From: Methylococcus mesophilus
GTDB lineage: Bacteria; Pseudomonadota; Gammaproteobacteria; Methylococcales; Methylococcaceae
NCBI RefSeq assembly: GCF_026247885.1
Contig: NZ_CP110921.1
Span: forward strand, 2,785,001 to 2,849,000
Length of the DNA stretch: 64,000 nt
Reading direction: 5' to 3'
The notes beneath the pieces were generated by a model. That model had not been told where the DNA came from. It did no database searches and saw only the letters and a program-made list of their open reading frames with translations. This document shows, piece after piece, positions 15,198 through 38,135 of this stretch; positions within the stretch are counted from its first letter, which is position 1; the number at the start of each line of letters is the position of its first letter. A program made the position numbers and the translations under genes.

Positions 15198-16046
15198 TTA
15201 GTCCGAAACGGACATAGAGTCTGCGGTTAAAAATGTGTCTGCAAACTGATCTGGCGTCAGGTAAGCCAACGAACTGTGGGGGCGTTGCTCATTGTATTCT
15301 CGACGCCACTCCTCAATGACTTGGCGAGCATGGCACATCGAGACGAACCAATGCTCGTTCAGGCATTCATCCCGGAATTTGCCGTTGAAGCTTTCGATGT
15401 AGGCGTTCTGCTGTGGCTTACCTGGCTGGATGAAGCTCAAGCACAGTCCTTGGCTATCGGCCCATTCATCCAAAGCCTTGCCGGCAAACTCGGGGCCGTT
15501 GTCGACGGTGACTGATTTGGGCAATCCGCGGATCTCTGCCAGCCGTTGCAGCACACCGACTACACGTCTGCCAGGCAGCGAAGTATCGACTTCGATGGCC
15601 AAGCACTGCTTCGTGAAGTCATCGACGATATTCAGGCACCGCAGCCGCCGACCATCGGCCAAACCGTCCGAAACATAGTCCATAGACCAACTCTCGTTAG
15701 GCGCCGATGGCGCGACCTTGATTTGGCGCTCCACGCCGGCAATGCGCTTCCGCTTTCGTTTGCGGACCATCAGGCCGGCCTCGTGATACACGCGATAGGT
15801 GCGCTTTCGGTTGATTTCCCAACCCTCTCGGCAAAGTAGCACGTGCAGCCGGCGATACCCATAGCGCCGCTTCTGCGCTGCCAATTCGCACAGTCGTTCC
15901 TTGAGCTCCTGGTCTGCTGGCCGCTTAGCTTCGTAGCGATACAGCGACCGAGAAATACCGATCAGCCCACAAGCCCGCGTGACGCCCATCTGGTGCTTTG
16001 TCATCAGATGGGAGACCGCCACCCTCTTGGCTTGTGGGCTTACCAC
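15198..16046 (-). CDS. IS3-family transposase OrfB (DDE catalytic part)
   Basis: Integrase-core transposase. The DDE residues are visible in WSMDYVSDGLADGR, VTVDNGPEFAG and YIESFNGKFRDECLNEHWF, and the C-terminus has RREYNEQRPHSSLAYLTP. A GTG at 16046 could start it, but in this family it is made as an OrfAB fusion by -1 frameshifting near the end of orfA: around 16045-16055 the two frames overlap at GGCCGAAAGTGG. The open frame itself extends upstream to 16226, where it overlaps orfA and is not meaningful protein. Confidence 0.93.
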   Translation of the reverse strand: MVSPQAKRVAVSHLMTKHQMGVTRACGLIGISRSLYRYEAKRPADQELKERLCELAAQKRRYGYRRLHVLLCREGWEINRKRTYRVYHEAGLMVRKRKRKRIAGVERQIKVAPSAPNESWSMDYVSDGLADGRRLRCLNIVDDFTKQCLAIEVDTSLPGRRVVGVLQRLAEIRGLPKSVTVDNGPEFAGKALDEWADSQGLCLSFIQPGKPQQNAYIESFNGKFRDECLNEHWFVSMCHARQVIEEWRREYNEQRPHSSLAYLTPDQFADTFLTADSMSVSD

Positions 16047-16303
16047 TTTCGGCCTACAACCTCTTTCAACGCAGCATTGTCCAGCATCGCCTCCGCCAGC
16101 AGGCGCTTGAGCCGGGCATTCTCGGTCTCCAGTGCCTTGAGCCGCTGCGCATCCGACACTGTCAGGCCGCCGTATTTCGCTTTCCAGTTGTAGTACGTCG
16201 CCTCGCTGAGCCCGTGCTTGCGGCACAGCTCCGCTACTTTTAGGCCGGCTTCGGCTTCCTTCAGGATGCCAATGATCTGTTCTTCGGTGAAACGCTTCTT
16301 CAT
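16040..16303 (-). CDS. IS3-family transposase OrfA (DNA-binding part)
   Basis: 87 residues. MKKRFTEEQIIGILKEAEAG, VAELCRKHGLSEATYYNWKAK and a leucine-zipper-like ENARLKRLLAEAMLDNAALK are the classic HTH_Tnp_1 OrfA of the IS407 group. It begins just inside the right inverted repeat and overlaps orfB. Confidence 0.95.
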   Translation of the reverse strand: MKKRFTEEQIIGILKEAEAGLKVAELCRKHGLSEATYYNWKAKYGGLTVSDAQRLKALETENARLKRLLAEAMLDNAALKEVVGRKW

Positions 16304-25182: not shown

Positions 25183-26598
25183 TCATGCCATGAATCCCAA
25201 ATCCACCGCCACGCCCTGCGTCGCCGGGAACAGGAGGCTCCAGTCCACGGTCGGATCGGGCACGAACCAGCGGCCCAGGGTGGCGGCGAACTGGTCGGTG
25301 GAAATCGCCGGTATCCAGGCCCCGCGGCCGTTGGCGTCGTCGTTGCCGCCGAGAACGTAGGCCGGCATCGTGCCGTACACCCCGCCCTGCACCGCATCCC
25401 CCAGCACGAAGTGATGGCTCCCCCAACCGTGGTCGCTGCCGTCGCCGGAAGGTTGCAGGGTGCGGCCGAATTCCGACTGGGTAAACGTGGCGACCTTGTC
25501 GGCGGCGCCGATGTTAGCCATCTCCTGGTAAAACGCGTCCATGGCGTCCGCCAGCTCGCCGAGCAGGTCATACTGCTGGTAGCTCTGTCCGCTGTGGGTA
25601 TCGAAGCCGCCCAACATGCAGAAGAACACCTGGCGGCCGGTACCGGTGCCGCCGCCGACGGGGTCGAGCCGCTTTTTGATGATTCGGGCGACCGTCTGCA
25701 GCTGGCCGCTCAGCCCGCCTGACCCGGTCTGCGGCCAATTCGCCGTCAGTGCCACCGAACTGAGAGTCTGAATGTTTGCGGCGAGTTGGATACCGTCGCC
25801 GAAGATGCGGTTGGCCACCTGGCGCAGAGGGCTGCCGCCGTCCTGCTTCAACAAGCCGTTCTTGATGCCGGCCAAAGCGGGGCTGGCGTTGTTGTCCGGC
25901 CACCAGCCGACGCCGGACAGGGCCAGGTTGCCGCCGACGGGGATGACGTTGTAGGCCGCGTTGCCTCCCCGCGGCAGGAAGGCGTTGCCGGCGACCGACA
26001 CCGCATCGAGGCTGGTGAGCAGACTGGGATCGATCAGGTCCAGCAGCCGGCCGCCCCAACCGTTGCCGTCGGATTTCGAGCCGGCCTGGGCGTCGATCAT
26101 CTGGTCCGAGTGCGAATACAGGTTGCTCGGCTTTTTCTTGAGCGGATCGTTGAAGTCCGCCAGCCCCGCCGGCAACGGCTCCACGAGGCTCCCCATGTTC
26201 AGCACCACGGCCAGCCGGCCCTGGTCGTAGCGGTCGCACAGCTTCTGCAAAGCGCCGTGCAGGGCATAAGGCGCCTCCAGCGGAGTGTTGAGACCGAGCT
26301 TCGAACTGACGCCGTTATATTGGCCGCCCGCGTGTAAAGCCAGCGTGGAGCCTCGCGCGTACCGGTAAGTCCCCGGGGTCTGGAAATCGCCGTAGGCGGG
26401 ACTGTCCAGCGAGGGAATCACGGTGTTGTGGCCGTCGTTGCCGCCAGCCAGGTAAATGCACACCAGCGCCTTGTAATCGCTCGGCGCCCAGCCCGCGGCC
26501 GAGGCCGGACGGCCGTTGGCGAGCAGATTGAGGGCGGCCAGGCTGCCGGTGAATTTGAGGAAATTGCGGCGGGATACGCAGTGGTCGTGAATCGTCAT
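25183..26598 (-). CDS. DUF1501 family Tat-exported protein
   Basis: 471 residues from the ATG at 26598. The N-terminus has a twin-arginine signal, SRRNFLKFTGSLAALNLLA. YLAGGNDGHNTVIPSL, GWGSHHFVLGDAV and FTQSEFGRTLQPSGDGSDHGWG are the conserved blocks of DUF1501 (PF07394), proteins in the alkaline-phosphatase-like/sulfatase superfamily of unknown activity. It lies 14 bases behind a DUF1800 gene; the two are almost always neighbours and are thought to act together outside the cytoplasm. Confidence 0.93.
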   Translation of the reverse strand: MTIHDHCVSRRNFLKFTGSLAALNLLANGRPASAAGWAPSDYKALVCIYLAGGNDGHNTVIPSLDSPAYGDFQTPGTYRYARGSTLALHAGGQYNGVSSKLGLNTPLEAPYALHGALQKLCDRYDQGRLAVVLNMGSLVEPLPAGLADFNDPLKKKPSNLYSHSDQMIDAQAGSKSDGNGWGGRLLDLIDPSLLTSLDAVSVAGNAFLPRGGNAAYNVIPVGGNLALSGVGWWPDNNASPALAGIKNGLLKQDGGSPLRQVANRIFGDGIQLAANIQTLSSVALTANWPQTGSGGLSGQLQTVARIIKKRLDPVGGGTGTGRQVFFCMLGGFDTHSGQSYQQYDLLGELADAMDAFYQEMANIGAADKVATFTQSEFGRTLQPSGDGSDHGWGSHHFVLGDAVQGGVYGTMPAYVLGGNDDANGRGAWIPAISTDQFAATLGRWFVPDPTVDWSLLFPATQGVAVDLGFMA

Positions 26599-26612: not shown

Positions 26613-28733
26613 TTAACGGTGAACGGCATATTCGCTGGACAGCGCCGCCAGATAGAGCAAGGTCCTGGCGCGCTGGGTCATGTCGCAATAGGGCAGCGCG
26701 GTGTCGTACAGGGTCTGGCGCAGCTCCGGCGACATCCGGCCGTGGAACAGGGTGGTGTTGATGAGATCGGCCAGCTTGTTGGGATCGGACGCCGCGGTGA
26801 CGTAGGGCGTCAGGTCGAACGCGTAAGCCGTCTTGGCCGACCCCGAGATAAGCTCCCAGAACAGATCGGCCCGCAGGATCGCCTGGCTCGGGGAATAGAT
26901 CTGATACTCCGGCCCGTACAGCCCGGAGCCATCCGGCAGCCGGCCCAGCGGAGAGTAATAGCTGAATACGCTGGGCGGTGCCAACACCGCTTCCCCGGCC
27001 AGCCGCAACTCCCATTGGAACAGTGCAGGATCGAGCAGGTTCGCGCCCACCGCGCGGGTGAAGCCCAGCATGTGCAGCACGGGGTCCTTCAAATGGCCCT
27101 GGTTGGCCGACGGCACATCGTGGCGGGCTTCGGCATCGGTCAGGATTCCCCGCACCACGGCCTTCAGATCACCGTCGGTGGTAGCGAAGACGTCCGCTAC
27201 CCGCTGAACGTAGGCCGGGCTGGGATTGCTGGTCACCAGGCTGCGGATCAGGCGGATCGCCACGAACGGCGCGACGTTGGGATGGTGGAAAATGCCGTCG
27301 ATCGCCAGATCCAGCTCGGCGGCGGTGGACTGGCCGGCAGGCAGGCTGAAGGCGCCGGGCGTATTCGCGAACAGCGTCTTGGCGCCCGTGGCATGGCTGC
27401 CGTCCCGCGTCTCCATGCCGCCCACGAAGTACTCGGGGTTCTTGGTCCGCGGAGTAGCGCCGGGCTGGGTCGGATAGGTCCAGCCGGTGAGGGCCAAAGC
27501 CAGTTGCTGGATGGTGGTCTGATCGTAGCTGCTCAGCGGCTTGCCGTAGGCATCGGTCTTGGCGCTGCCGTCCTGATTGAGCTGAACCAGCCCGACGCTG
27601 AACAGCTGCAGCAGCTCGCGCGCATAGTTCTCGTTGGCGCCGCTGGGATTGCCCGGCGAGGGCTTCACGCTGTTGGCCAGGTCCAGGAACTTGCCCATGG
27701 TTGGCGATACCGTGACCTGCCGCATCAGGCTCTCGTAATTGCCGAAGGCGTTATGCACCAGCAGGTTGACCCAGGGGATCAGGTCGTCGCCGTTGGTGTT
27801 CTTGTTGGAAGACACCACGAAGATCTGCGACAGCGCGAACGCCACCCGCTGCCGCAACTGGTCCGGCGCCGCCGCCATGTTGCCGAACCACAGCGCTGCC
27901 ACCTGCGAGGTGTTGAGGCCGTTCGGGATCAGCGATTCGGGTGTCTGCGCGGGATCGAACTGCTTGTCCAGCCAGGCGTCGATACCGGACTGCTTCACCT
28001 CGGTCAGCGTGGCCGGGGTCGGGCCGAAACTGGCCTGCTCCAGGAACCGGGCCGCCCGGACGTCCAAGGCGTCGGCGGCGGCGCCCGCGACATACGGCGC
28101 GGACGGACAGCTCGGATTGGATACCGTGCTGCAGACGCCGAAGCAGAACTTGTAGGCGGCAGAGGTCAGGTTGCCGGGATTGACCAGCACCAGGCTGGCG
28201 GTGCCCTGGTCCGCGCTGCCCGCCGTGCCGGTGACGGTCACCGTACCGTTGGGATTGATGACGGCAGCGGCCGGCTTGTTGTTGACCAGCGCCTGCAGCG
28301 GCGTGTACAGGCGGGTGGCCTTGACCGTGAGGCTGTAATTGCCCAGCGGTACGGGATTGGGCGCGACGCTGGAGATCAGCGGGCGCGGCAGTCGCACTGT
28401 GACCAGGGCGCTGCCGGACACCGCGGGATCGGCCTGGGCGGTCGCCGTAACCACCACGGTGTTCACCGCCGGGATCGCCGCCGGCGCGGTGTACGCGCCG
28501 GTGCTGCTATCGATCGTGCCCGGACTGTCGGTGCTGCCCGGCGCCCCGCTTACCGACCAGATCACCGCGGTGCTGGCCAAGCCGCTGACGGTGGCGGTGA
28601 ACGTCCGGCTGCCATTGATCGGCACCGAATCCGTCGCGGGACTCACCGTAATGTCGGCGGCCCATGCTCCCGCCTGGACACATAGGGCCACGCCCCAGGC
28701 CAAGCGAAACAGAAATGGAATGACGAGTCGCAT
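26613..28733 (-). CDS. DUF1800 family exported protein with N-terminal Ig-like domains
   Basis: 706 residues with signal peptide (MRLVIPFLFRLAWGVALCVQAGAWA). Residues ~25-115 form a bacterial Ig-like domain (ITVSPATDSVPINGSRTFTATVSG) and ~115-200 an IPT/TIG-like one. The rest is DUF1800 (PF08811): AARFLEQASFGPT, QLRQRVAFALSQIFVVS, NENYARELLQLFSVGL, DPVLHMLGFTRAVGA. CAGGAGG stands nine bases before the ATG. It is the first gene of the DUF1800-DUF1501 operon, and the 22-bp direct-repeat operator shared with two other secreted-protein genes lies about 90-120 bases upstream of its start. Confidence 0.93.
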   Translation of the reverse strand: MRLVIPFLFRLAWGVALCVQAGAWAADITVSPATDSVPINGSRTFTATVSGLASTAVIWSVSGAPGSTDSPGTIDSSTGAYTAPAAIPAVNTVVVTATAQADPAVSGSALVTVRLPRPLISSVAPNPVPLGNYSLTVKATRLYTPLQALVNNKPAAAVINPNGTVTVTGTAGSADQGTASLVLVNPGNLTSAAYKFCFGVCSTVSNPSCPSAPYVAGAAADALDVRAARFLEQASFGPTPATLTEVKQSGIDAWLDKQFDPAQTPESLIPNGLNTSQVAALWFGNMAAAPDQLRQRVAFALSQIFVVSSNKNTNGDDLIPWVNLLVHNAFGNYESLMRQVTVSPTMGKFLDLANSVKPSPGNPSGANENYARELLQLFSVGLVQLNQDGSAKTDAYGKPLSSYDQTTIQQLALALTGWTYPTQPGATPRTKNPEYFVGGMETRDGSHATGAKTLFANTPGAFSLPAGQSTAAELDLAIDGIFHHPNVAPFVAIRLIRSLVTSNPSPAYVQRVADVFATTDGDLKAVVRGILTDAEARHDVPSANQGHLKDPVLHMLGFTRAVGANLLDPALFQWELRLAGEAVLAPPSVFSYYSPLGRLPDGSGLYGPEYQIYSPSQAILRADLFWELISGSAKTAYAFDLTPYVTAASDPNKLADLINTTLFHGRMSPELRQTLYDTALPYCDMTQRARTLLYLAALSSEYAVHR

Positions 28734-28822
28734 TTTCCAAACCTCCTGATCAAGTGATATGGCCAGCCCCGACGAACCTGTCGGCGTTTACAGTGCCACG
28801 ACATGTACTCGAAATCTTGGAC

Positions 28823-28853
28823 GATACCGCAGAGATATAAGGATGATTCCGCA
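28823..28853 (-). promoter_or_regulatory. Predicted AraC-type operator upstream of the DUF1800 operon
   Basis: GATACCGCA (28823-28831) and GATTCCGCA (28845-28853) on the plus strand are direct repeats exactly 22 bp apart, two DNA turns, as AraC-family dimers prefer. CTTGGAC precedes the first half-site. The same arrangement occurs at 32157-32187 and 38105-38135. Confidence 0.6.
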
Positions 28854-28931
28854 TATATGCGGTGTGCGCGGAGCACGATTGCCGGACATCGCTTAAACCC
28901 GGGTCTTTACCGGTCAATGAAAAACGGAGCC

Positions 28932-29238
28932 TCACTCGCAGTCCGGCGACTCACTACCGTCTCCTGCGGACGTGGCCACCCCTCGCATCTCTTCACGCTC
29001 GAGCTCCATCAAGAGCCGGAGGCGGTCGTCCCTGGCAACCTCGCGCCAGGATTTTCCCGAAATCCCCCCCCTCGATCGCCCACAGCAGGTTGAGGCTGGC
29101 ACAGGCACCGCACCCCTTGACCTGAACGAATGCCCGGACGACACCGAGTGCCTGAAGCTGCTCAAGCGTATGGATACCGGCTCGCGCAGGCATCTCGCCT
29201 GATTTCGGCCCAAAAGTTGGAAGGTCGCAGATGTTCAA
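28932..29238 (-). pseudogene. TfoX C-terminal-domain protein, frameshifted in a G-run
   Basis: From a TTG at 29238 the frame gives ICDLPTFGPKSGEMPARAGIHTLEQLQALGVVRAFVQVK, then LNLLWAIEG, the start of a TfoX_C domain (PF04994). The remainder, SWREVARDDRLRLLMELE, is in the next frame and ends at 28932. The frames meet at eight consecutive Gs (minus strand, 29064-29071), where seven would give the continuous domain. Stand-alone TfoX_C proteins are short and of uncertain function, with a helix-hairpin-helix-like fold. The start is uncertain, with no RBS. Confidence 0.75.
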
Positions 29239-29365
29239 CGGCGAATCCGGCCCAGATTCTGTGTTGACGCTTGTTTCTCAGCCTTCCTCAGAAGGCACGA
29301 ATGCCGTTCCATCTGCTGGCCTTCCATAGGTTTATCTGAATACCTCAGCAGGAATACCCCTTGGC

Positions 29366-31924
29366 TCAGGGCAGTACCTTCACGAACTTCGCCTTGACCT
29401 GTTTCGACTTGTTCAGGGTGACTTCACAGAGGAGTTGTGGCGGCAGGGTGCCGCCCTGCACTTTGAGCTTGCAGGGACCCGACCAGCCGAGGAAGAGATA
29501 TTTCGGCGCCGCCGTGGCCGTCAGGGTGACGACCGATCCCTGGGCGAAACTGCCCTGGCAGGTGGGGCCGCAGTCGACGCCGGCGGGGGCGCTGGTGACC
29601 TTGCCTTTGCCGTTCTTGACGACGCTGAGATTGTAGGTTGGCGTCACCGATACGAAACTGGCGGTGACGGCCTTGGCCTGGTTCATGGTGACTTGGCAGG
29701 TGGCGCCGACGCTGCTGTCGCAGCCGCTCCAGCCGGAAAAGGCGTAGCCCGCAGCCGGCACCGCCGTCAGGGTGACGCTGCTACCGGCCTTGAAGTCCGC
29801 ACCGCAGGCGCTGCCGCAGTCGATGCCCGCCGGATTGCTGGCAACCGTTCCGCCACCGGCATTGGTAACGGTGAGTGCATACCGCAGCGTGTAAACATAG
29901 GCCGCGCCGCAATGGCTCCCCTGCGCGCAGGACTGCCCCAATGCGCCCACCAGCAAGGTGTCGCCGGCCAGCGCAACTTCACCGAAATAAGCATCCGCTT
30001 GGGTGTCCTCACTGCCATCGGTGTTTTGCGCGGACATCTTTCCTTGAATGTTCCAGGCCGTCCCGGTCCGCCGGTATACGTACGCAGCACCGCAGCTAGC
30101 TCCAGCCGAACAAGAGCGCCCCCAAGCGCCGACCAGTGCGGTATCCCCGGACAGCGCCACCGAATTGCCAAAGTTGGCACTTGCCTCGGCATCATCGGTC
30201 CCCTCCGGATTCTGCGCGGTGATTTTCTGTTGGATCGTCCAAGCCGTGCCCGATCGGCTGTAGACGTAAGCCGCCCCGCAACTCGCCCCTCCGGCACACG
30301 AACGGCCGGAAGCTCCTACCAATGCCGTGTCACCGGACAGCGCCGCGGAGTTGCCGAAATGCGCAGCGTCCGCGATGTCATCGCTGCCGTCGCTCTTCTC
30401 GGCGAATATTTTTTGCTGAATATGCCATTGGGTTCCGCTACGGGCATAGAGATAAGCGGCGCCGCAGGCGCCCCCCCATGTGCAATCCAAGCCAGGGGCG
30501 CCCACAAGCGCAGTGTCGCCGGATAACGCAACGGAGCTCCCGAAATAAGCATGCATTGCCTGGTCGTCGGTACCATCCGTGTGGAGAGCAACCAGTTTCT
30601 TCTGGATGTCCCAACCGCCTCCGCTGCGGGTATAGACGTACGCCGCTCCACAGCCTGCCGCCCCTCCCGGACATTGCCGAACATCGGCACCGATCAAGGC
30701 GGCATTGCCCATCAATGCGACCGACCGGCCGAACTCGGCAAAGCCGGTCACATCGGACGTGCCGTCCGTGTTCTGCGCCGTAATTTTCTGCTCGATACTC
30801 CATGTGGTACCGCTGCGGTTATAGACGTAAGCCGCTCCACAGGAATAGCTCCCTGCACAGGACCGGTCTTGTGCTCCGACCAATGCCGTATCGCCGTCCA
30901 ACGCAACAGCAATGCCGAAATCGGCTTTCGCCTCGGTATCGTCGCTACCGTCGGTATTCTGTGCCGTGAGTTTCTGCTGGACCTCCCATGTGGTACCGGT
31001 GCGGGTATAGACATAGGCCGCCCCACAGCCGGCACCCGCCGAGCAATCTCGACCGTTGGCCCCGACCAGCGCCGTATCGCCTGAGAGCGCTACGGAGTAG
31101 CCGAGCTGTGCATTTTGTTCGGTGTCGCCGCTGCCGTCCGTATTCTGTGCCGAAAGCTTCTGCTGAATGCTCACGATCAAGGGATCGACCGTGACGGGCC
31201 AAGCCGCGCCGCGGACGTCCACCTCGATGGTGAGCTGATCTTCGACCGCCGCCAGATGCGCCGGCAGGGTCTTGCCGTTGGCGTCGATCACGCTGAGGTC
31301 CTTGTACGCCAGCACTTCCTGGCCGCTCCTGTCGCGGAACCTGGCGCTCCTGCCGCCGGCCTCGATCCCGGCTTTGAGGTCGCCGCCGGTTCCCAGCCGC
31401 AGTTCCACCGCGGCGGCGGCGGTCTCCGGCGGGCGCGCCAAGGTGAAGCCTTGCTCCAGGCCTTCGGGCCGGTTCTCGTACCATTCCGTCACCGCACCGC
31501 GGCGGTATTCCAGCCGTTGCCCGCTGGCTGAGACTTCGGCTTTCACGATGGGCTGGAGATGCCCGGACGTGCCGTAGCCGGTGAGTTTCATCGACCAGCG
31601 CCAGTCGCGCGGCTTGCCGCCGGGCGCGATTTCCAGGCCATCGCCGTCGAAGTTCAGCGCCATCCGGTTATCGGGGTTCAGCGCGGTGTAATGGCCTGCG
31701 CCCGCCGGTTCGATGCTGCGCAGGCGCTGGTCGATAGCATTCCGTAATTCCGGAGGAACCGCGTTGCGGGCCGGCTGCGCCTCCGCGCCCCCAGCGACCA
31801 GCACCACCAGCAGCGCAATGCCCACGCGCGCCTGCGCCGAACCGGAATCATCGAAGTTCGGCACGATGCCGCGCCATTTCGACAGACTCAGCCACGCAGG
31901 CACGTTCGTAAAGTTGAATCTCAT
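29366..31924 (-). CDS. Secreted FG-GAP seven-repeat propeller protein with InlB-like C-terminal repeats
   Basis: 852 residues from the ATG at 31924 (GGAG eight bases upstream); a start seven codons earlier is possible. After a signal segment (ARVGIALLVVLVAGGAEA) comes a ~200-residue N-terminal domain. Then seven ~60-residue repeats with the pattern QQKLTAQNTDGSDD-x-FG-x-VALSGDTALVG-x-CGAAYVYTRSGTTW form an FG-GAP-like beta-propeller. Two ~75-residue divergent InlB B-repeat units (GGTVASNPAGIDCGSAC.., KGKVTSAPAGVDCGPTC..) end the protein. Likely a surface or extracellular protein. The predicted AraC operator lies 233 bases upstream. A decayed partial copy is at 33734-34140. Confidence 0.85.
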   Translation of the reverse strand: MRFNFTNVPAWLSLSKWRGIVPNFDDSGSAQARVGIALLVVLVAGGAEAQPARNAVPPELRNAIDQRLRSIEPAGAGHYTALNPDNRMALNFDGDGLEIAPGGKPRDWRWSMKLTGYGTSGHLQPIVKAEVSASGQRLEYRRGAVTEWYENRPEGLEQGFTLARPPETAAAAVELRLGTGGDLKAGIEAGGRSARFRDRSGQEVLAYKDLSVIDANGKTLPAHLAAVEDQLTIEVDVRGAAWPVTVDPLIVSIQQKLSAQNTDGSGDTEQNAQLGYSVALSGDTALVGANGRDCSAGAGCGAAYVYTRTGTTWEVQQKLTAQNTDGSDDTEAKADFGIAVALDGDTALVGAQDRSCAGSYSCGAAYVYNRSGTTWSIEQKITAQNTDGTSDVTGFAEFGRSVALMGNAALIGADVRQCPGGAAGCGAAYVYTRSGGGWDIQKKLVALHTDGTDDQAMHAYFGSSVALSGDTALVGAPGLDCTWGGACGAAYLYARSGTQWHIQQKIFAEKSDGSDDIADAAHFGNSAALSGDTALVGASGRSCAGGASCGAAYVYSRSGTAWTIQQKITAQNPEGTDDAEASANFGNSVALSGDTALVGAWGRSCSAGASCGAAYVYRRTGTAWNIQGKMSAQNTDGSEDTQADAYFGEVALAGDTLLVGALGQSCAQGSHCGAAYVYTLRYALTVTNAGGGTVASNPAGIDCGSACGADFKAGSSVTLTAVPAAGYAFSGWSGCDSSVGATCQVTMNQAKAVTASFVSVTPTYNLSVVKNGKGKVTSAPAGVDCGPTCQGSFAQGSVVTLTATAAPKYLFLGWSGPCKLKVQGGTLPPQLLCEVTLNKSKQVKAKFVKVLP

Positions 31925-32156
31925 TGGCTCATCTCCATGTGTCATGTGTCAGGCATCATCGAAACGCCATCCAATCGACTGTCCCCGGGTATCTCCCGTT
32001 TGTTTCAGATTAGCCGGGGTGCGCCGCGCTATCCTGCGAATTCCCTGGAACTTGGCTGCAACCAAGCTGCAATCCGGCTGCCGCCTCGGAGTGAAGTCAG
32101 GGCGGCGTGGTTCTTCCCTGCCAATCTACCAAAGCCCATGGACAGCGCTCTACGTC

Positions 32157-32187
32157 GATTCCGCACAGTTGCAGGGACGATTCCGCA
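32157..32187 (-). promoter_or_regulatory. Predicted AraC-type operator between the FG-GAP gene and an AraC regulator
   Basis: GATTCCGCA at 32157-32165 and again at 32179-32187, a perfect direct repeat with a 22-bp period. It lies between the divergent FG-GAP gene (start 31924) and the first AraC gene (start 32378), so it could act on either. The rest of the 450-base gap holds nothing else I recognise. Confidence 0.62.
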
Positions 32188-32377
32188 CAGGGATTTAAAG
32201 ACCAGGCACAGGAAGACTCGAGCCGGCGAGCCGGGCTGTCGGCTCCCTGTAACCCATCTATGCCTCCGATCCCATTGGTGATAAACATATAAAATCGGAT
32301 GCAAACTAGTGCCTTTTTGGGCATCCGCAGCGGATGCCGCCGAATCACCAGTCAGAAGAAACCAGAAAATCCGGAAG

Positions 32378-33394
32378 ATGGACTGTCCAAAATCCAATTT
32401 TGCGATGACTTTTTGCACGGACGACTTCCCCGCCGTCAGCCGAACGGAAATGTGGCAGGAACTGATCGCCGCCAAGGTGTTCGGCCAGGAAGTGTCGCCG
32501 GTCACGTCGGCCCCATTTTTCGCCCAGGCGAACTGCCTGCGCCTGGGCAAGGTGGACTTGGCCTATGGCTGGTCCAGTCCCGCCGTGTACCGCCGGACAC
32601 CGCGGCTGATCGCCGCCGACGGCAATGACGATCTGGTTATGGTGATCAACATTGCCGGACGTCTGGAAGTGACCGACGACTCGCACCAAAGCCGAACCCT
32701 TGATGAACTCAGCGCCACGGGATTCCGCTGCGGGAAGCCGGTCGCCTTGTTTTCTCAAGCAACGGCGTATTCGGACGAGCGCAACCACCACGCGACCAGC
32801 ATCCGGATTCCGCGCCAGGAACTGCTGCGGCGCGCACCGCAAGGAGAAAGGCTCATCCTCGGCCGATTCGACAGCCGGGGAGAGCCTTTCAGCTTGCTGT
32901 TGGGATATCTGCAACTGCTCAGGAGCACCGGCACCCTCCTGCAGAACGCGGATCTGGCCCGGCTGGCGGGCGACCATATCCTGGATATGGTGACGCTGAT
33001 GCTCAACCCGACCCGCGATGCCCGGCGGGAGGCCGCCCACGGCGGCCTGAGGGCGGGCCGGCTGGCCGCCCTGCAACGCTACATCGCTCTGAATTATCGG
33101 GACTTCGAAATATCCGTGGGAAAAGCCGCAAGCGCACTGCGTATTTCAGAGAGGTACGTGCAGAGCTTGATGGCCGAAACCGGCTCCAGCTTCACCGAAA
33201 CGGTCAACTGGCATCGATTGGACTTGGTTCGAGGGCTGCTCGGCGACGCCGGGAATCAGCGCCAGCGGATCAGCGACCTTGCCTTTGACGCCGGCTTTCG
33301 AGACTTGGCTTACTTCCACCGGTTGTTCCGGCGTCGGTTCGGCGACTCACCCGGAGCCTTCCGGATCGGCAAGGATTCCGCTGACGAAAAATAG
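32378..33394 (+). CDS. AraC family transcriptional regulator, paralogue 1
   Basis: 338 residues from the ATG at 32378 (MDCPKSNFAMTFCTDDFPAV). The N-terminal ~200 residues are the sensor part of the AraC-binding-like group (PF14525-type: SRTEMWQELIAAKVFG.., LGKVDLAYG.., YRRTPRLIAADGNDDLVMVINIAGRLEV). The C-terminal ~110 residues carry two helix-turn-helices (SVGKAASALRISERYVQSLMAETG and ISDLAFDAGFRDLAYFHRLFRRRFGDSPGAFR). It is paralogous to 34318-35355 and 36009-37049. The divergent neighbour is the FG-GAP protein gene and the operator repeat sits between them. Confidence 0.92.
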   Translation: MDCPKSNFAMTFCTDDFPAVSRTEMWQELIAAKVFGQEVSPVTSAPFFAQANCLRLGKVDLAYGWSSPAVYRRTPRLIAADGNDDLVMVINIAGRLEVTDDSHQSRTLDELSATGFRCGKPVALFSQATAYSDERNHHATSIRIPRQELLRRAPQGERLILGRFDSRGEPFSLLLGYLQLLRSTGTLLQNADLARLAGDHILDMVTLMLNPTRDARREAAHGGLRAGRLAALQRYIALNYRDFEISVGKAASALRISERYVQSLMAETGSSFTETVNWHRLDLVRGLLGDAGNQRQRISDLAFDAGFRDLAYFHRLFRRRFGDSPGAFRIGKDSADEK

Positions 33395-33503
33395 GACCGG
33401 CCTCCCCCTGGACTCCTCAGACCAAAGAGCAGGGCAACCGCAGCGTAGGATTTCTCCGCTGCGGGGCTGCACACCCAAAGTCACTGCTTAGGATTTGGCA
33501 AAG

Positions 33504-33671
33504 AATAACTTCCCGAAATTAACAGCCGTCGTTCCGGCATGGATTGCCGGACTCCAGGTTCCAGGGGTGGAATGGCCTGGGAACATCCATGTAGTCTGGA
33601 TGCCGGCGATCCTTGCCGGCATGACGGTGCTTTGAACGAAAAATGTTGTTCGGTCATTCAGGGAAGTTATT
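33504..33671. repeat. Nested inverted-repeat (MITE-like) element 1
   Basis: Outer arms AATAACTTCCC (33504-33514) and GGGAAGTTATT (33661-33671) are perfect inverted repeats. Inside them, CCGTCGTTCCGGC and GCCGGCATGACGG form a second, imperfect pair. The element resembles 35638-35828 in its inner CCGTC(A/G)TTCCGGC sequence. It fills most of the gene-free stretch after AraC paralogue 1 (33395-33733). Confidence 0.6.
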
Positions 33672-33733
33672 TTCGGCCATATCCTTACCCTCCAGCGGAT
33701 CATCTGGATACCTCAGCAGGAAAGTTTCCTGGC

Positions 33734-34140
33734 TCAGGGCAATACCTTCACGAACTTCGCCTTGACCTGTTTCGACTTGTTCAGGGTAACTTCGCAGAGA
33801 AGCTGCGGCGGCAGGGTACCGCGCTGAACCCGGACCGCGAGCTTGCAGGGGCCCGACCAGTCGAGGAAGAGGTATTTCGGCGCCGCCGTGGCCGCCAGGG
33901 TGACGACCGATCCCTGGGCGAAACTGCCCTGGCAGGTCGGGCCGCAGTCGATGCCGGCGGGGGTGCTGGCGACCTTGCCTTGCCGCTCTTGACGACGCTG
34001 AGGTTGTAGGTCGGCGCCCCCGCCACCACGGTGTCTCCGGAAATCGCGACCGCATAGCCGAGACTATTATTCGACGCTGCATCCGAGGCGGTCGCCTTGA
34101 AGGACTCGGTACCATCCGCACAGACGCCGATTCCGCGCAT
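33734..34140 (-). pseudogene. Decayed copy of the FG-GAP/InlB-like protein tail
   Basis: The first half (TESFKATASDAASNNSLGYAVAISGDTVVAGAP) is an FG-GAP repeat from a different family member. It is joined directly to TYNLSVVKSGK.., the start of the last InlB-like repeat of the gene at 29366, after which one base is missing and the frame is lost. In the restored frame the sequence continues as GPTCQGSFAQGSVVTL and ends KSKQVKAKFVKVLP with a stop at 33734. DNA identity to 29366-29640 is very high, including about 30 bases beyond the stop. A recombination or deletion scar between related genes is the simplest reading. Confidence 0.75.
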
Positions 34141-34317
34141 ATGAGCCGCTTTGAACCCGTCGAAGTCGCCACAACCCGATCGATCAGATAGAATCGGCGG
34201 CGCACAACTTCCCGGGGCTCACCGTACCGGCTTCCAGCTCTGAAACGTTTCGACAGCCAGCGCAGGAACCGAAGCGCCAACGAATCGGAACTCAAGTCCT
34301 TTTGGAACAAACGCTGA

Positions 34318-35355
34318 ATGGAACCTCTGGAAGTCAACGCCGATTTGACTTTTTGTACCACCGACTTTCCTCGCGCAAAGCGGATGGAAATGTGGCGCGA
34401 ACTCGTCGCCTCGGCGGTGTTTGGGCAAGACATGACGCCTGCAGATCCGCTCTCGTTTTTCGCTAGAGCCAGTTGCCTTCCCTTGGGCATAGTCGACGTG
34501 GTACGGGGCACATCCAGCGATGCCGTCTACCGCCGGACGCCCCGGCTGATCGCCGCCGACGGTAATGACGACTTCGTATTCGCGGTGAACCTCGCCGGCC
34601 GTCTTGAGGTCACAGATAGCTTGCGCCACAGCAGAAGCCTCGCCGGTGTGGGCGCTACCGGATTCCACTGCGGCAAACCCGTGACTCTGTCCTGTCTTTC
34701 ATGTTCGGACGGACACCCGTACGGCGCCGTCAGCCTGCGTATTCCGCGGATGGAGTTGCGCCGGCGGGCGCCCCACGGCGAGAAAAACATTCTCGGATGT
34801 TTCAGCGGGACGGAGGAACCTCTGCGTTTGCTGATGGGATATTTGCGGATGTTCGGCAAAGCCGGTACTCCGATACCCAAAGGGGAATTGGCGCAACTGG
34901 CGGGTTCTCATATCCTGGATCTGGTGACGCTGATGGTCGGCCCCACCCGCGACACCCGGTGGGAAGCTTCTCAAGGCGGCCTCCGGGCGGCTCGGCTTTC
35001 AGCCGTCCAGTCACTTCTGGGACGCGATTTCCAGGACCACGAGCTTTCCGTGCGAAAGGTCGCAGGCGCCCTCGGGATTTCCGAACGCTACGTGCAGAAT
35101 CTGATGGCCGAAACCGGCGAGAGCTTTACCGAAACGGTCAACCGCCTGCGACTGGAGCACGCGCAACAGATGCTCGGCGAGCCGAGGTATCGACATTGGC
35201 GCGTGAGCGACGTCGCCTTTGCTTCTGGCTTCAGCGATTTAGCTTATTTCCATCGCTTGTTTCGGCGCCGGTTCGGTGACTCACCGGGCAACTTCAGAAC
35301 CGGCATCAAGCGCAACGATCACCGGCGAACCGCCAACGAAACATCCAACACATAG
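34318..35355 (+). CDS. AraC family transcriptional regulator, paralogue 2
   Basis: 345 residues (MEPLEVNADLTFCTTDFPRAKRMEMWREL). Same two-part build as paralogue 1, with closely matching blocks: YRRTPRLIAADGNDDFVFAVNLAGRLEV, LAGSHILDLVTLMVGPTRD, GISERYVQNLMAETGESFTETVNRLRLEHA and SDVAFASGFSDLAYFHRLFRRRFGDSPGNFR. The recognition helix GFSDLAYFHRLFRRRFG is almost identical in paralogues 1 and 2, which suggests they bind the same or very similar sites. Confidence 0.93.
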   Translation: MEPLEVNADLTFCTTDFPRAKRMEMWRELVASAVFGQDMTPADPLSFFARASCLPLGIVDVVRGTSSDAVYRRTPRLIAADGNDDFVFAVNLAGRLEVTDSLRHSRSLAGVGATGFHCGKPVTLSCLSCSDGHPYGAVSLRIPRMELRRRAPHGEKNILGCFSGTEEPLRLLMGYLRMFGKAGTPIPKGELAQLAGSHILDLVTLMVGPTRDTRWEASQGGLRAARLSAVQSLLGRDFQDHELSVRKVAGALGISERYVQNLMAETGESFTETVNRLRLEHAQQMLGEPRYRHWRVSDVAFASGFSDLAYFHRLFRRRFGDSPGNFRTGIKRNDHRRTANETSNT

Positions 35356-35637
35356 GCGCAGCGCCGGCATCCAGGCCCCAGGATGGACCTTGCCTCCCAC
35401 GGCCTCTGGGTTTCGTCGATCCAGGTGCGACGGTTGCAGTTTTTCCTGGGCTTTCCGTGCAGATTGGGTCTTATTTTGACACCCTCCCTGTCCATGAACC
35501 TCAAGGTCAAAGCGCCCTTCAGCCCGCGACGAATGCCAATCGTGGGCCGAAGCCCGTCTCGAGCGACGCCGGAGGACCCACTCCCACGATCGGTCCAAGT
35601 TCCCGGGCGCCTTCGGCGCGGGCAATACGCTTTACCT
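35356..35637. other. Gap without a supported gene
   Basis: Short overlapping frames on both strands, none convincing. Together with element 2 that follows it makes a 650-base gene-free stretch between AraC paralogues 2 and 3. Confidence 0.35.
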
Positions 35638-35828
35638 GATTAGCAAGAATCCTCAGCCGTCATTCCGGCAGGGAGCTCGGATTCCAGGCCAGGGACGGTA
35701 GGTCGCCACCCAAGGCGCGCTTCGTCGAAGTTCGCGAGACTACCGGCCTAACATCCTTGTCGCTGGATTCCGGCTTCCCGGCCGGAATGACGGAGTTTTT
35801 CGAGGTTGGCTGAAGATTCTTGCTAATC
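35638..35828. repeat. Nested inverted-repeat (MITE-like) element 2
   Basis: Outer arms GATTAGCAAGAATC (35638-35651) and GATTCTTGCTAATC (35815-35828) are perfect 14-bp inverted repeats. Inner arms CCGTCATTCCGGC (35657-35669) and GCCGGAATGACGG (35781-35793) are perfect 13-bp inverted repeats. The inner sequence matches the common proteobacterial CGTCATTCCGGC intergenic repeat. Confidence 0.72.
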
Positions 35829-36008
35829 AGGATGCTTTATGGCCTCCCAGAGGCGAGAGCAGACATGGCCACGGCGATCGCCTCTGGGCTGGCACTCTTT
35901 TTGATAGACAATCACGCAATCCGGGCAGCACAATTTCACAACCGTGCGGTTCCAATTTGCTCGGGAGTCGGACATCGGCGTTGCGACATCAGTCGAACAG
36001 GAGTCAAT

Positions 36009-37049
36009 GTGGGCAGCCTACTCGTTTTTTGCAGCAATGAACTGCCGGAGCGCGATCGCTTCGATCTCTGGCGGGAGATGGCCTCCGGCGGGCCGGGGGC
36101 AGTCGATGTCGTCCATGTCGATCGGCGCCCTTTTTTCGGGCGGGTCGAATGGCTTCCATTGGGGTGTATCGACGCCTACAAGGCATCGTTCAGCGCTGCG
36201 ACTTTTACCCGCTCCCGCCGCTGGATCGAACGGGACGGTTTCGACGGCTTCTGCTTCCACATCAATCTGAGCGGACGCAGCGAGACCTCGCGCCACAAGG
36301 AGAAAACGGTGCTGGACGGTTTCAGCGCAACCGGCTATTCGTACGGCAAGCCCTTCGAAGCCTCGCTCGTTCCGCAGGCCGGCCGGTACTGCGAGAGCCT
36401 GAATCTGGTCGTTCCCCGCGGGGAGATGCTGCAAAAGGCGCCCAATGCGGAGCGGTCTATCGGCGCACTCCAGGCGGATCAGGCACCGCTGCGATTGCTG
36501 TCGCAGTATCTGATGCTGCTGGGCAATACCCCGCCGGTTGCCGAGGATTCCCGGCTGTCCCAGCTTGCCGGCAACCACGTCCTGGACCTGCTCGCCTTGG
36601 TGCTGGGGCCGACCCGAGAGGCCGAGCACGAGGCCGGGCTTTGCGGCTTGCGAGCGGCGCGTTTGGCGACGTTGAAAAAATACCTTCAGGACCATCATCA
36701 CCGGCCGCAGCTGTCGGTGGCCGCGGCGGCCCGGGCCTTGAATATTTCAGAGCGGTATCTGCATGATTTAATTGGAGAAACCGGCGAGAGTTTTACTGAA
36801 ATGGTAAACCGCCTGCGGCTGGAGCGGGCGCGCGGGCTGCTGTGCGACCCGAAGTATCGGCACCTTCGCATCGGCGAGATCGCTTTCGCCTCGGGTTTCA
36901 ATGATTTGTCTTATTTCAACCGGCTGTTCCGGCGCCGGTTCGGCGAAACACCGGGGACCTTCAAGGCTGGGGAGCAGATGGCCGCCGACTCTTTCCGTGC
37001 GCTCGACCGGCTGGTGTTGCCCGGCAGTATGGAAACCGGGCACGACTGA
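36009..37049 (+). CDS. AraC family transcriptional regulator, paralogue 3
   Basis: 346 residues from a GTG at 36009 preceded by CAGGAG at the right distance; the frame is open back to 35820, but this start gives the length of the two paralogues. It keeps the scheme (ERDRFDLWREMASGGPG.., FNDLSYFNRLFRRRFGETPGTFK at the C-terminus) but is more diverged in the sensor part (DVVHVDRRPFFGRVEWLPLG). A bidirectional terminator separates it from the convergent haem-binding protein gene, whose promoter has the same operator repeat. Confidence 0.92.
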   Translation: MGSLLVFCSNELPERDRFDLWREMASGGPGAVDVVHVDRRPFFGRVEWLPLGCIDAYKASFSAATFTRSRRWIERDGFDGFCFHINLSGRSETSRHKEKTVLDGFSATGYSYGKPFEASLVPQAGRYCESLNLVVPRGEMLQKAPNAERSIGALQADQAPLRLLSQYLMLLGNTPPVAEDSRLSQLAGNHVLDLLALVLGPTREAEHEAGLCGLRAARLATLKKYLQDHHHRPQLSVAAAARALNISERYLHDLIGETGESFTEMVNRLRLERARGLLCDPKYRHLRIGEIAFASGFNDLSYFNRLFRRRFGETPGTFKAGEQMAADSFRALDRLVLPGSMETGHD

Positions 37050-37107
37050 CCGCTGCGAGGCTTCACCCCGCTTTGAACTCAAACGCTTTCCGGAAAATAG
37101 CGGAAAC

Positions 37108-37137
37108 AAAAAACGCCGACGAACCTCGGCGTTTTTT
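37108..37137. terminator. Bidirectional intrinsic terminator
   Basis: AAAAAACGCCGA (37108-37119) and TCGGCGTTTTTT (37126-37137) are perfect inverted repeats around a six-base loop with T-runs on both strands, between the convergent AraC paralogue 3 and the haem-binding gene. Confidence 0.92.
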
Positions 37138-37166
37138 GCATGGCAAAACCGGCTTTGGCCGTTGCC

Positions 37167-37973
37167 TTATTGAGCCGGACCGTAAATCGAACCGGCATTT
37201 ACACCCGGCCCGGGGTTGTTGAGGCAGGTCGGGTGCCCGAATCCGCTTGTGCTGGCCTGGTTGCCGATGCCGTTGTCCTTGACGATGTCCTGAATCATCG
37301 CATCGTTGTTGCCGGGGGAAACGCCGGCCGGGACGTTCTTGACGGCGAAGGCGCCGCCCGCCAGCAATTCGCGCACCTTCCAGGCCACGACATGGTCGGT
37401 ACAGGAGGTGTCCCCTGAAACGCCGATCGCGCCGACCTTCTGCTTGGCGGAGTTATAGAGCGCGAGCCCGCCGCCGAATACATTGATGCCGCCGATGCGC
37501 TTGCCCTTCAGCGGATCGTTCTTGGCGCCGAACTTGATTGCGCTGCCGAGGTAAGACAAGGTCGGGTCGATGGGATTGCTGGCCTGCAAGCCGTAGAGGC
37601 TGCCGCTGGGCTGAGTCGCGGTGTAGAGGTTGGCGGTCGACAGGGCGAGGTCACCGGTGCTGAAAGCATTGGCCGCATTGGCCTTCTGGGCGGAAATGTT
37701 ACGGCTGCCCAGCCAGATGTCCGCCGTCACGTCCTGCGATGCGCTCAGGGAATTGGTCACGTTGCAGATGGTGCCGCTGCCGTCCACCAGGGTCAGCCAC
37801 ATCGGGAAACCCAAGCCGCCGTTGTCCAGCGATACGACGCTGCTGATCGTGGACTTCATGTTGTCGTAGGTCAGCCCCTGCTTTTCCAGGTCGGCGCAAG
37901 TCGCTGCCCAGGCGGCACTCGAGGAAAGAAGCAGGCCGGTCACGGCCCCGCAGATTTGTTTGGCGTTGAACAT
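37167..37973 (-). CDS. Secreted GlcG/HbpS-like haem-binding family protein
   Basis: 268 residues with a signal peptide (MFNAKQICGAVTGLLLSSSAAWA). NPIDPTLSYLGSAIKFGAKNDPLKGKRIGGINVFGGGLALYN and KVGAIGVSGDTSCTDHVVAWKVRELL are the GlcG/HbpS (PF03928) blocks, although this member has an insertion and a long N-terminal part. Some relatives bind haem or cobalamin. A promoter (TTGTCC-17-TATTCT) and the shared AraC operator lie 105-162 bases upstream, with the operator touching the -35 box, consistent with activator control by one of the neighbouring AraC proteins. Confidence 0.85.
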   Translation of the reverse strand: MFNAKQICGAVTGLLLSSSAAWAATCADLEKQGLTYDNMKSTISSVVSLDNGGLGFPMWLTLVDGSGTICNVTNSLSASQDVTADIWLGSRNISAQKANAANAFSTGDLALSTANLYTATQPSGSLYGLQASNPIDPTLSYLGSAIKFGAKNDPLKGKRIGGINVFGGGLALYNSAKQKVGAIGVSGDTSCTDHVVAWKVRELLAGGAFAVKNVPAGVSPGNNDAMIQDIVKDNGIGNQASTSGFGHPTCLNNPGPGVNAGSIYGPAQ

Positions 37974-38077
37974 GGAATCTCCGTGGTTACCTTGGTATTT
38001 GATGGTTGGACTGATTGCCGGTCAAGGGATGTGCTCCTCCACCGGCGCCGGCTTCGACATCCGGCTGTCGAAGTTTA

Positions 38078-38106
38078 AGAATAAAACGCCGGATTTTCTT
38101 GGACAA
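38078..38106 (-). promoter_or_regulatory. Promoter of the haem-binding protein gene
   Basis: On the minus strand TTGTCC (38106-38101) and TATTCT (38083-38078) are 17 bases apart, four of six matches each. The proximal operator half-site overlaps the -35 box by two bases, the class II position of AraC-type activators. Confidence 0.5.
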
Positions 38107-38135
38107 TAGCGCAATCCGACGGAGCAGATTCCGCA
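38105..38135 (-). promoter_or_regulatory. Predicted AraC-type operator upstream of the haem-binding protein gene
   Basis: AATAGCGCA (38105-38113) and GATTCCGCA (38127-38135) on the plus strand, period 22 bp, preceded by CTTGGAC as at 28823. Third member of the set. Confidence 0.58.

What the first reader, a model, noticed from the sequence alone, without database searches (positions are those of the whole stretch)
28823..38135. A shared 22-bp direct-repeat operator at three secreted-protein promoters, inside a cluster of three AraC paralogues
Seen directly: GATACCGCA/GATTCCGCA at 28823 and 28845, GATTCCGCA twice at 32157 and 32179, AATAGCGCA/GATTCCGCA at 38105 and 38127. The period is exactly 22 bp each time, in the same orientation relative to the downstream gene (DUF1800-DUF1501 operon, FG-GAP protein, haem-binding protein). 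Two of the three also share CTTGGAC just before. AraC-family proteins bind direct repeats one or two turns apart, and three paralogous AraC genes lie among these targets with nearly identical recognition helices in paralogues 1 and 2. At the haem-binding gene the proximal half-site touches the -35 box, a class II activator position. I infer a local regulon for exported proteins.
Basis: partly seen in the sequence, partly recalled or inferred. Interest (0 to 1): 0.8.

Follow-up and report, generated by a model that had tools for sequence, protein, structure and literature searches.

The report
AraC-type operators before exported-protein genes
Three genes in this methane-eating bacterium share a real two-part DNA switch that is most likely read by a family of duplicated AraC-type regulators and mostly controls exported proteins.

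Summary
The true half-site is longer: TGCG-N5-GTCC(AAG), read toward the gene. A profile built only from relatives' sites gave 20 hits at E<=0.1 in 38 family genomes. All 20 precede one of five gene classes: two integrase-like genes, hbpS-like, FG-GAP, DUF1800. All fall in the 6 Methylococcus genomes that hold this AraC subfamily; 32 genomes without it gave none. The hbpS operator is 0.83 conserved, the DNA before it 0.32. The genome has 12 AraC paralogues, not 3. Eight lie in a second cluster with a sister operator; each of its 8 strong sites faces a signal-peptide-like ORF. Recognition helix and box A fall into three matching groups, with exceptions. A -10-like hexamer follows at a constant 23 bp. 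Best reading: XylS-like class II activation of a Methylococcus regulon. Binding, inducer and expression are untested. The FG-GAP site (32157) is the weakest: its proximal box B is degenerate and the profile did not list it. New member of a known kind.

The parts
28815..28853 (-). Operator of the DUF1800-DUF1501 genes: TGCGGAATCATCC-N9-TGCGGTATCGTCC-AAGA, period 22
   Evidence: R1 E=0.0045 in the whole genome with no DUF1800 site in training
28790..28795 (-). Putative -10-like hexamer CACTGT, 23 bp after TCGTCC (poor match; place inferred)
   Evidence: place inferred from the hbpS, int-1 and int-2 promoters
26613..28733 (-). DUF1800 protein, signal-peptide-like start
   Evidence: Pfam PF08811 E=1.8e-84; home-made export rule
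25183..26598 (-). DUF1501 protein, probably co-transcribed with the DUF1800 gene (inferred from the 14-bp gap)
   Evidence: Pfam PF07394; gene
32149..32187 (-). Operator of the FG-GAP gene: distal half-site TGCGGAATCGTCC intact, proximal TGCGGAATCGACG with degenerate box B
   Evidence: not in the R1 lists, 9.3 bits on the distal part when scored alone; two G005 FG-GAP homologues (by eye) also carry sites
29366..31945 (-). FG-GAP repeat protein, signal-peptide-like start (start codon at 31945 or 31924)
   Evidence: Pfam PF14312, 7 stretches
38096..38135 (-). Operator of the HbpS-like gene: TGCGGAATCTGCTCCGTCGGATTGCGCTATTGTCCAAGAA, period 22
   Evidence: R1 E=5.9e-8; an operator is present in 6 of 6 genus genomes, period 23 in two of them
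38072..38077 (-). Putative -10 TAAACT, 23 bp after TTGTCC
   Evidence: TAAACT or TAGGCT at the same place in 6 of 6 genomes
37167..37973 (-). HbpS-like (haem-binding/degrading fold) protein, signal-peptide-like start
   Evidence: Pfam PF03928 E=3.1e-9; 86-96% identical in the 5 relatives
32378..33394 (+). AraC1 (AraC_binding_2 + HTH_18)
34318..35355 (+). AraC2, 58% identical to AraC1
36009..37049 (+). AraC3, convergent with hbpS
35907..35935 (-). Weak operator-like site upstream of AraC3, pointing away from it; possible autoregulation
   Evidence: R1 E=0.17; block partly conserved in relatives

Best explanation
The repeats are operators for dimers of an AraC/XylS-type activator subfamily that, within this family of bacteria, was found only in Methylococcus. 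Each monomer's two helix-turn-helices read box A (TGCG) and box B (GTCC) of one half-site. Two half-sites in direct repeat two helical turns apart place the second monomer directly upstream of a poor -35 region, so the regulator recruits RNA polymerase to a promoter with a fixed -10 (class II activation). AraC1-3, with similar recognition helices, probably share the operator. Targets are mostly exported proteins (HbpS-like, FG-GAP, DUF1800-DUF1501) plus two integrase-like genes. In this strain the regulator-target unit has been duplicated into a second cluster with a different box A. Shown here: the operators, their conservation, their positions, and co-occurrence with the regulators. Inferred: binding, activation, and which paralogue acts where.
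For: R1, trained on 12 sites of relatives only, gave 20 hits at E<=0.1 in 38 genomes: before int-1 (5), hbpS (6), int-2 (6), FG-GAP (2) and DUF1800 (1). All are in the 6 genomes that hold the AraC subfamily and none in the 32 that lack it at E<=1e-20. Of the 20, 12 are the training sites and 8 are not; most of the 8 are orthologues of training sites, but DUF1800 is a gene class the model had not seen. The extended pattern gave 13 hits and 0 control hits in 6 genomes. hbpS footprint 0.83 against 0.32 upstream. AraC3 lies beside hbpS and AraC4 divergent from int-2. Recognition helix 1 groups with box A: ISERY with TGCG, ISESY with TA-type boxes, ISRRY with GCAC. A -10-like hexamer starts 23 bp after T[TC]GTCC in 6 of 6 hbpS, 5 of 5 int-1 and 5 of 6 int-2 promoters of the genus. 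The box A/box B direct-repeat layout matches that described for XylS (PMC5481539, passages). Cluster B: 8 R2 hits at E<1e-3, all within 2298505-2340897, 3 of them not training sites, each facing a signal-peptide-like ORF 60-227 bp on.
Against: No binding or expression data. The integrase-like family has the same genus-only distribution as the AraCs, so co-occurrence alone cannot choose between them. The FG-GAP operator lacks a good box B in its proximal half and R1 did not list it. The G005 DUF1800 orthologue has only a degenerate site that R1 did not list. hbpS spacing is 23 bp in 2 of 6 genomes and int-2 spacing 21 in 5 of 6. The helix/box match rests on three groups and has exceptions: GCAC stands in 5 of 5 distal but only 3 of 5 proximal half-sites of the R2 training set, the second hbpS copy does not fit either group well and has its -10-like hexamer one base off. 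R2 was trained on cluster-B sites, so its locality is partly built in. For hbpS, TTGTCC could itself be a -35 with TANNCT or TACCTT 17 bp on.
Confidence: 0.82

Rival explanations
1. The repeats are bound by the degenerate tyrosine-recombinase-like proteins (int family), which act as DNA-binding regulators, the AraC genes being mere neighbours.
For: int genes are found in the same 6 of 38 genomes as the AraCs; int-1 and int-2 carry the operator themselves; they look catalytically dead (residue roles recalled).
Against: The bipartite half-site in direct repeat at two turns is the layout described for the AraC-family protein XylS (PMC5481539); cluster B has 8 AraC genes and 8 strong sites but one int about 3 kb from its edge; box A varies with the AraC helix.
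Confidence: 0.07
2. The conserved GTCCAAG plus fixed -10 is a promoter of an alternative sigma factor rather than an activator site.
For: GTCCAAG and the -10-like hexamer keep a constant distance.
Against: A sigma promoter does not explain a second copy of the half-site 21-23 bp upstream at hbpS, int-1, int-2, DUF1800 and FG-GAP, nor the AraC adjacency.
Confidence: 0.06
3. The sites are AraC-type operators but act by repression or looping instead of class II activation.
For: A reversed, weak site lies upstream of AraC3; AraC itself loops DNA (recalled).
Against: The strong sites have one orientation toward the gene and one fixed place just upstream of the -35 region, which fits activation.
Confidence: 0.12
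4. Chance repeats or a dispersed repeat element.
For: The single nonamer is at chance level and the copy at 38105 has three mismatches.
Against: 0.11 paired matches expected per window; 13 hits to 0 controls in the genus; orthologous footprints; spacers are not conserved between the three sites.
Confidence: 0.01

Closest known systems
XylS / Pm promoter (Pseudomonas putida TOL plasmid)
   Same: AraC-family activator; two 15-bp direct repeats, each a box A (TGCA) and a box B (GGTA); a title in the reference list says that XylS and polymerase sites overlap (PMC5481539, passages only).
   Different: Boxes here are TGCG/GTCC with 5 bp between them (XylS 6), period 21-23; targets are mostly exported proteins, not aromatic degradation; the inducer is unknown.
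FeaR and other AraC_binding_2 regulators
   Same: AraC_binding_2 plus HTH layout (that FeaR shares it is recalled); FeaR is the best NCBIfam match of AraC2 and AraC3.
   Different: FeaR scores are 56.3-74.7 bits against a cut-off of 199, so none of the three is FeaR.
HbpS of Streptomyces reticuli
   Same: HbpS-like Pfam domain and likely export.
   Different: That HbpS is described as part of HbpS-SenS-SenR (PMC3754957, start of the abstract in the listing); here the neighbour is an AraC gene.

Membership tests
AraC/XylS transcription regulators | C-terminal double HTH (HTH_18 / HTH_AraC) | tested here: met
   AraC1-3 HTH_18 E 8.9e-16 to 3e-21, above the curated cut-off
AraC/XylS transcription regulators | AraC_binding_2 N-terminal domain (of this subfamily) | tested here: met
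   38.8-43.4 bits against a cut-off of 27
AraC/XylS transcription regulators | DNA binding and response to an inducer | not testable with these tools
   Needs gel shift, footprint, reporter
XylS-type class II operator | Two direct half-sites about two turns apart, each with box A and box B | tested here: met
   Periods 21-23; half-site TGCG-N5-GTCC; but the FG-GAP proximal box B is degenerate
XylS-type class II operator | Proximal half-site at the -35 region | tested here: inconclusive
   Constant 23 bp to a -10-like hexamer in most promoters, but no start site is mapped
XylS itself | TGCA/GGTA boxes | tested here: not met
   TGCG or GCAC and GTCC instead
FeaR | NCBIfam equivalog cut-off | tested here: not met
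   56.3, 67.6 and 74.7 bits against 199
HbpS-like | PF03928 match above cut-off | tested here: met
   37.4 bits against 25

The most novel reading that the evidence does not exclude
In Methylococcus a regulator-operator-exported-protein unit has been copied repeatedly, and the copies have split into at least three specificity groups in which the AraC recognition helix and box A of the operator changed together, so that a set of surface or secreted proteins is driven by insulated parallel regulators, with inactivated recombinase-like proteins as further members of the circuit.
Probability: 0.4. Interest if true: 0.6.

Novelty: new member of a known kind. Interest (0 to 1): 0.45.

Why it matters
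It defines, from sequence alone, a regulon in a model genus of methane oxidisers that my literature searches did not turn up (open-access library only), with a precise operator that can be tested at once. Twelve paralogous regulators with sister operators in one genome are a natural experiment on how activators and their sites diverge together. It also gives a first lead on the control of little-studied exported proteins (HbpS-like, DUF1800-DUF1501, FG-GAP).

Tried and rejected
Scanning cluster B for the window's own nonamer gave no pair there at period 22, only one weak pair at 21. Exact 9-mer direct repeats in cluster-B intergenic DNA gave only scattered hits at 20, 24 and 26 bp; the sister operator was found by following GTCCAAGA. 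The search for related loci with AraC2 confirmed no relative among 42 pattern matches. R2 outside G000 gave no hit below E=0.04; of those at 0.04-1.1 several are the known int-1 and hbpS sites, and the one other that I opened, G005:C73:4265, lies inside a coding frame that looks like a replication gene and is taken as chance. R1 over 24 HbpS loci from other genera of the family, with 1.5 kb flanks where the contig allowed (several are shorter), gave none. Copper control was considered: a term search in the main text of PMC4831470 (passages) shows 0 mentions of AraC, integrase, DUF336 or DUF1800, so it does not bear on it. The FeaR operator was searched for in papers without a useful result. 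Papers were seen only as listings, except passages of PMC4831470 and PMC5481539.

Full report
All six nonamers are present at 28823/28845, 32157/32179 and 38105/38127. The paired pattern with up to 3 mismatches occurs 3 times in the window against 0.11 expected, never more than once in 100 shuffles. The single nonamer is at chance level. Between the three sites 15-17 of 18 core positions agree but only 2-7 of 13 spacer positions. In the whole genome the pair with at most one mismatch is found only at 28823 and 32157; at up to three mismatches 7 hits stand against 3 of the backward control, so the nonamer pair alone would not have established 38105.

Read toward the genes, all on the - strand, the half-site is longer, about TGCG-N5-GTCC followed by AAG in the proximal copy. 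The pattern TGCGGNATNNTCC-N9-TGCGNNATNGTCC with up to 3 mismatches gives 13 hits in 6 genomes of the genus and 0 for the backward control. They precede an integrase-like gene (int-1, 5), hbpS (4), FG-GAP genes (3, two of them named by eye) and DUF1800 (1). The genus is taken to be Methylococcus: the hbpS match of G001 has the same contig coordinates and identity as a record of M. capsulatus Texas.

To limit circularity a profile (R1) was built from 12 sites of the five relatives only. In the window's genome its best hits are int-1 at 66236 (E 4.6e-9), hbpS (5.9e-8), int-2 at 2782966 (2.8e-5) and DUF1800 (0.0045); the first three have orthologues in training, DUF1800 has none. Then come a reversed site before AraC3 (0.17), a cluster-B site (2) and the second hbpS copy (2.4). 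FG-GAP at 32157 is not in that list; scored alone it reaches 9.3 bits on its intact distal half, because the proximal box B reads GACG. Over 38 family genomes R1 gives 20 hits at E<=0.1: int-1 5, hbpS 6, int-2 6, FG-GAP 2, DUF1800 1; 12 are the training sites and 8 are not. All are in the 6 genus members, none in the 32 others. The tool scored only 150 first-look candidates per genome, so weak sites may be missed.

The AraC subfamily has the same distribution: 6 of 38 genomes at E<=1e-20. HbpS-like genes occur in 30 of 38 genomes; the 24 such loci from other genera showed no R1 site, though several of these loci are cut short by the contig. The integrase-like family is also found in 6 of 38 at E<=1e-15, so distribution alone does not separate AraC from int as the binder. 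Upstream of hbpS, mean pairwise conservation is 0.83 over the operator and 0.32 over the DNA before it. At DUF1800 the G005 orthologue keeps a degenerate copy with 4 mismatches that R1 did not list; the other four relatives have no DUF1800 homologue at E<=0.001.

The regulators number 12 in this genome (38-100% identical to AraC2; five further matches are distant AraC proteins): AraC1-3 in the window, AraC4 just left of it, and eight in cluster B at 2.298-2.341 Mb. AraC3 and hbpS are convergent neighbours in G000-G004; in G005 a 52% relative of AraC3 lies 1.7 kb from hbpS. AraC4 relatives lie divergent from int-2 in all five relatives. Helix 1 of the DNA-binding domain falls into three groups: ISERY (AraC1-3 and relatives), ISESY (AraC4 and relatives), ISRRY or ISKRY (cluster B and relatives). 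Neighbouring operators have box A TGCG, TA-type (TAAAG and TACG or TACA; TGCG in the G005 proximal copy) and GCAC respectively. There are exceptions: GCAC stands in 5 of 5 distal but 3 of 5 proximal half-sites of the R2 training set, the second G005 FG-GAP site has a poor proximal half, and the second hbpS copy fits no group well.

Cluster B was reached by the shared GTCCAAGA. A second profile (R2, five cluster-B sites) gives 8 hits at E<1e-3 in this genome, three of them not in training (2299785, 2298505, 2334630), all inside 2298505-2340897. Every one of the 8, and the second hbpS copy, faces an ORF with a signal-peptide-like start; for the 8 it begins 60-227 bp downstream. With a home-made signal-peptide rule 12 of 12 non-integrase targets in the two regions are positive against 41 of 114 other called genes (Fisher p 1.1e-4 with int-2 counted as a negative). 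The rule is permissive, and three targets were scored from hand-picked ORFs, so this is supporting evidence only. Pfam names two of the seven cluster-B targets tried: DUF3455 and, below its cut-off, PQQ_2.

Promoter geometry: counting from T[TC]GTCC, a -10-like hexamer starts after exactly 23 bp: TAAACT or TAGGCT in 6 of 6 hbpS promoters, CAGAAT or CACAAT in 5 of 5 int-1 promoters, TAGGGT, TAGTGT or TACGGT in 5 of 6 int-2 promoters (one base later in G005) and one base earlier in the second hbpS copy. DUF1800 has CACTGT and FG-GAP GTAGAT at that place, poor matches. With a 17-bp spacer the -35 would be AAGAAN, a poor one, directly after box B; that is a class II activator position. For hbpS alone TTGTCC could itself be a -35 with TATTCT-like hexamers 17 bp on.

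Mechanism: an AraC dimer on two direct half-sites, as in XylS, whose half-sites are a box A (TGCA) and a box B (GGTA) six bases apart (PMC5481539, passages). Shown: sites, conservation, positions, co-occurrence. Inferred: binding, activation, sharing of sites by AraC1-3. Unknown: inducer, conditions, function of the targets. It is a new member of a known kind. Its interest lies in the duplicated regulator-target units with diverging operators and in the integrase-like members.

Noticed in passing
genome 66445-67377, 2781780-2782724, 2294654-2295589 (L222, L211, L217): Tyrosine-recombinase-like proteins found only in the genus among 38 family genomes: in all 12 copies aligned the His of the HxxR motif reads E or D and no Tyr stands at the usual place after LLGH, a Trp being nearby, so they look catalytically dead (residue roles recalled, read by eye).
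   Followed up: partly
genome 2337855-2338658 (L060): Second HbpS-like copy, 82% identical, in cluster B with a diverged operator upstream.
   Followed up: partly
window 35906-35940: Operator-like block before AraC3 pointing away from it, partly conserved in relatives; maybe autoregulation or AraC3's own promoter.
   Followed up: partly
G002:C1:706908-707006 (L048): A 33-residue match, 79% identical, to the AraC2 C-terminus beside AraC3: probably a remnant of a lost AraC2 copy.
   Followed up: no
genome 2307804-2320042 (L027, L028): Two very long ORFs in cluster B (2378 and 1653 aa) whose starts resemble SpvB/TcaC and Rhs-type proteins by eye; not examined.
   Followed up: no
window 15198-16303: IS3-type transposase genes by eye, in two ORFs.
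   Followed up: no
G001 and G003 hbpS promoters (L058, L055): One extra base between the half-sites gives period 23 instead of 22, a natural test of spacing tolerance.
   Followed up: no
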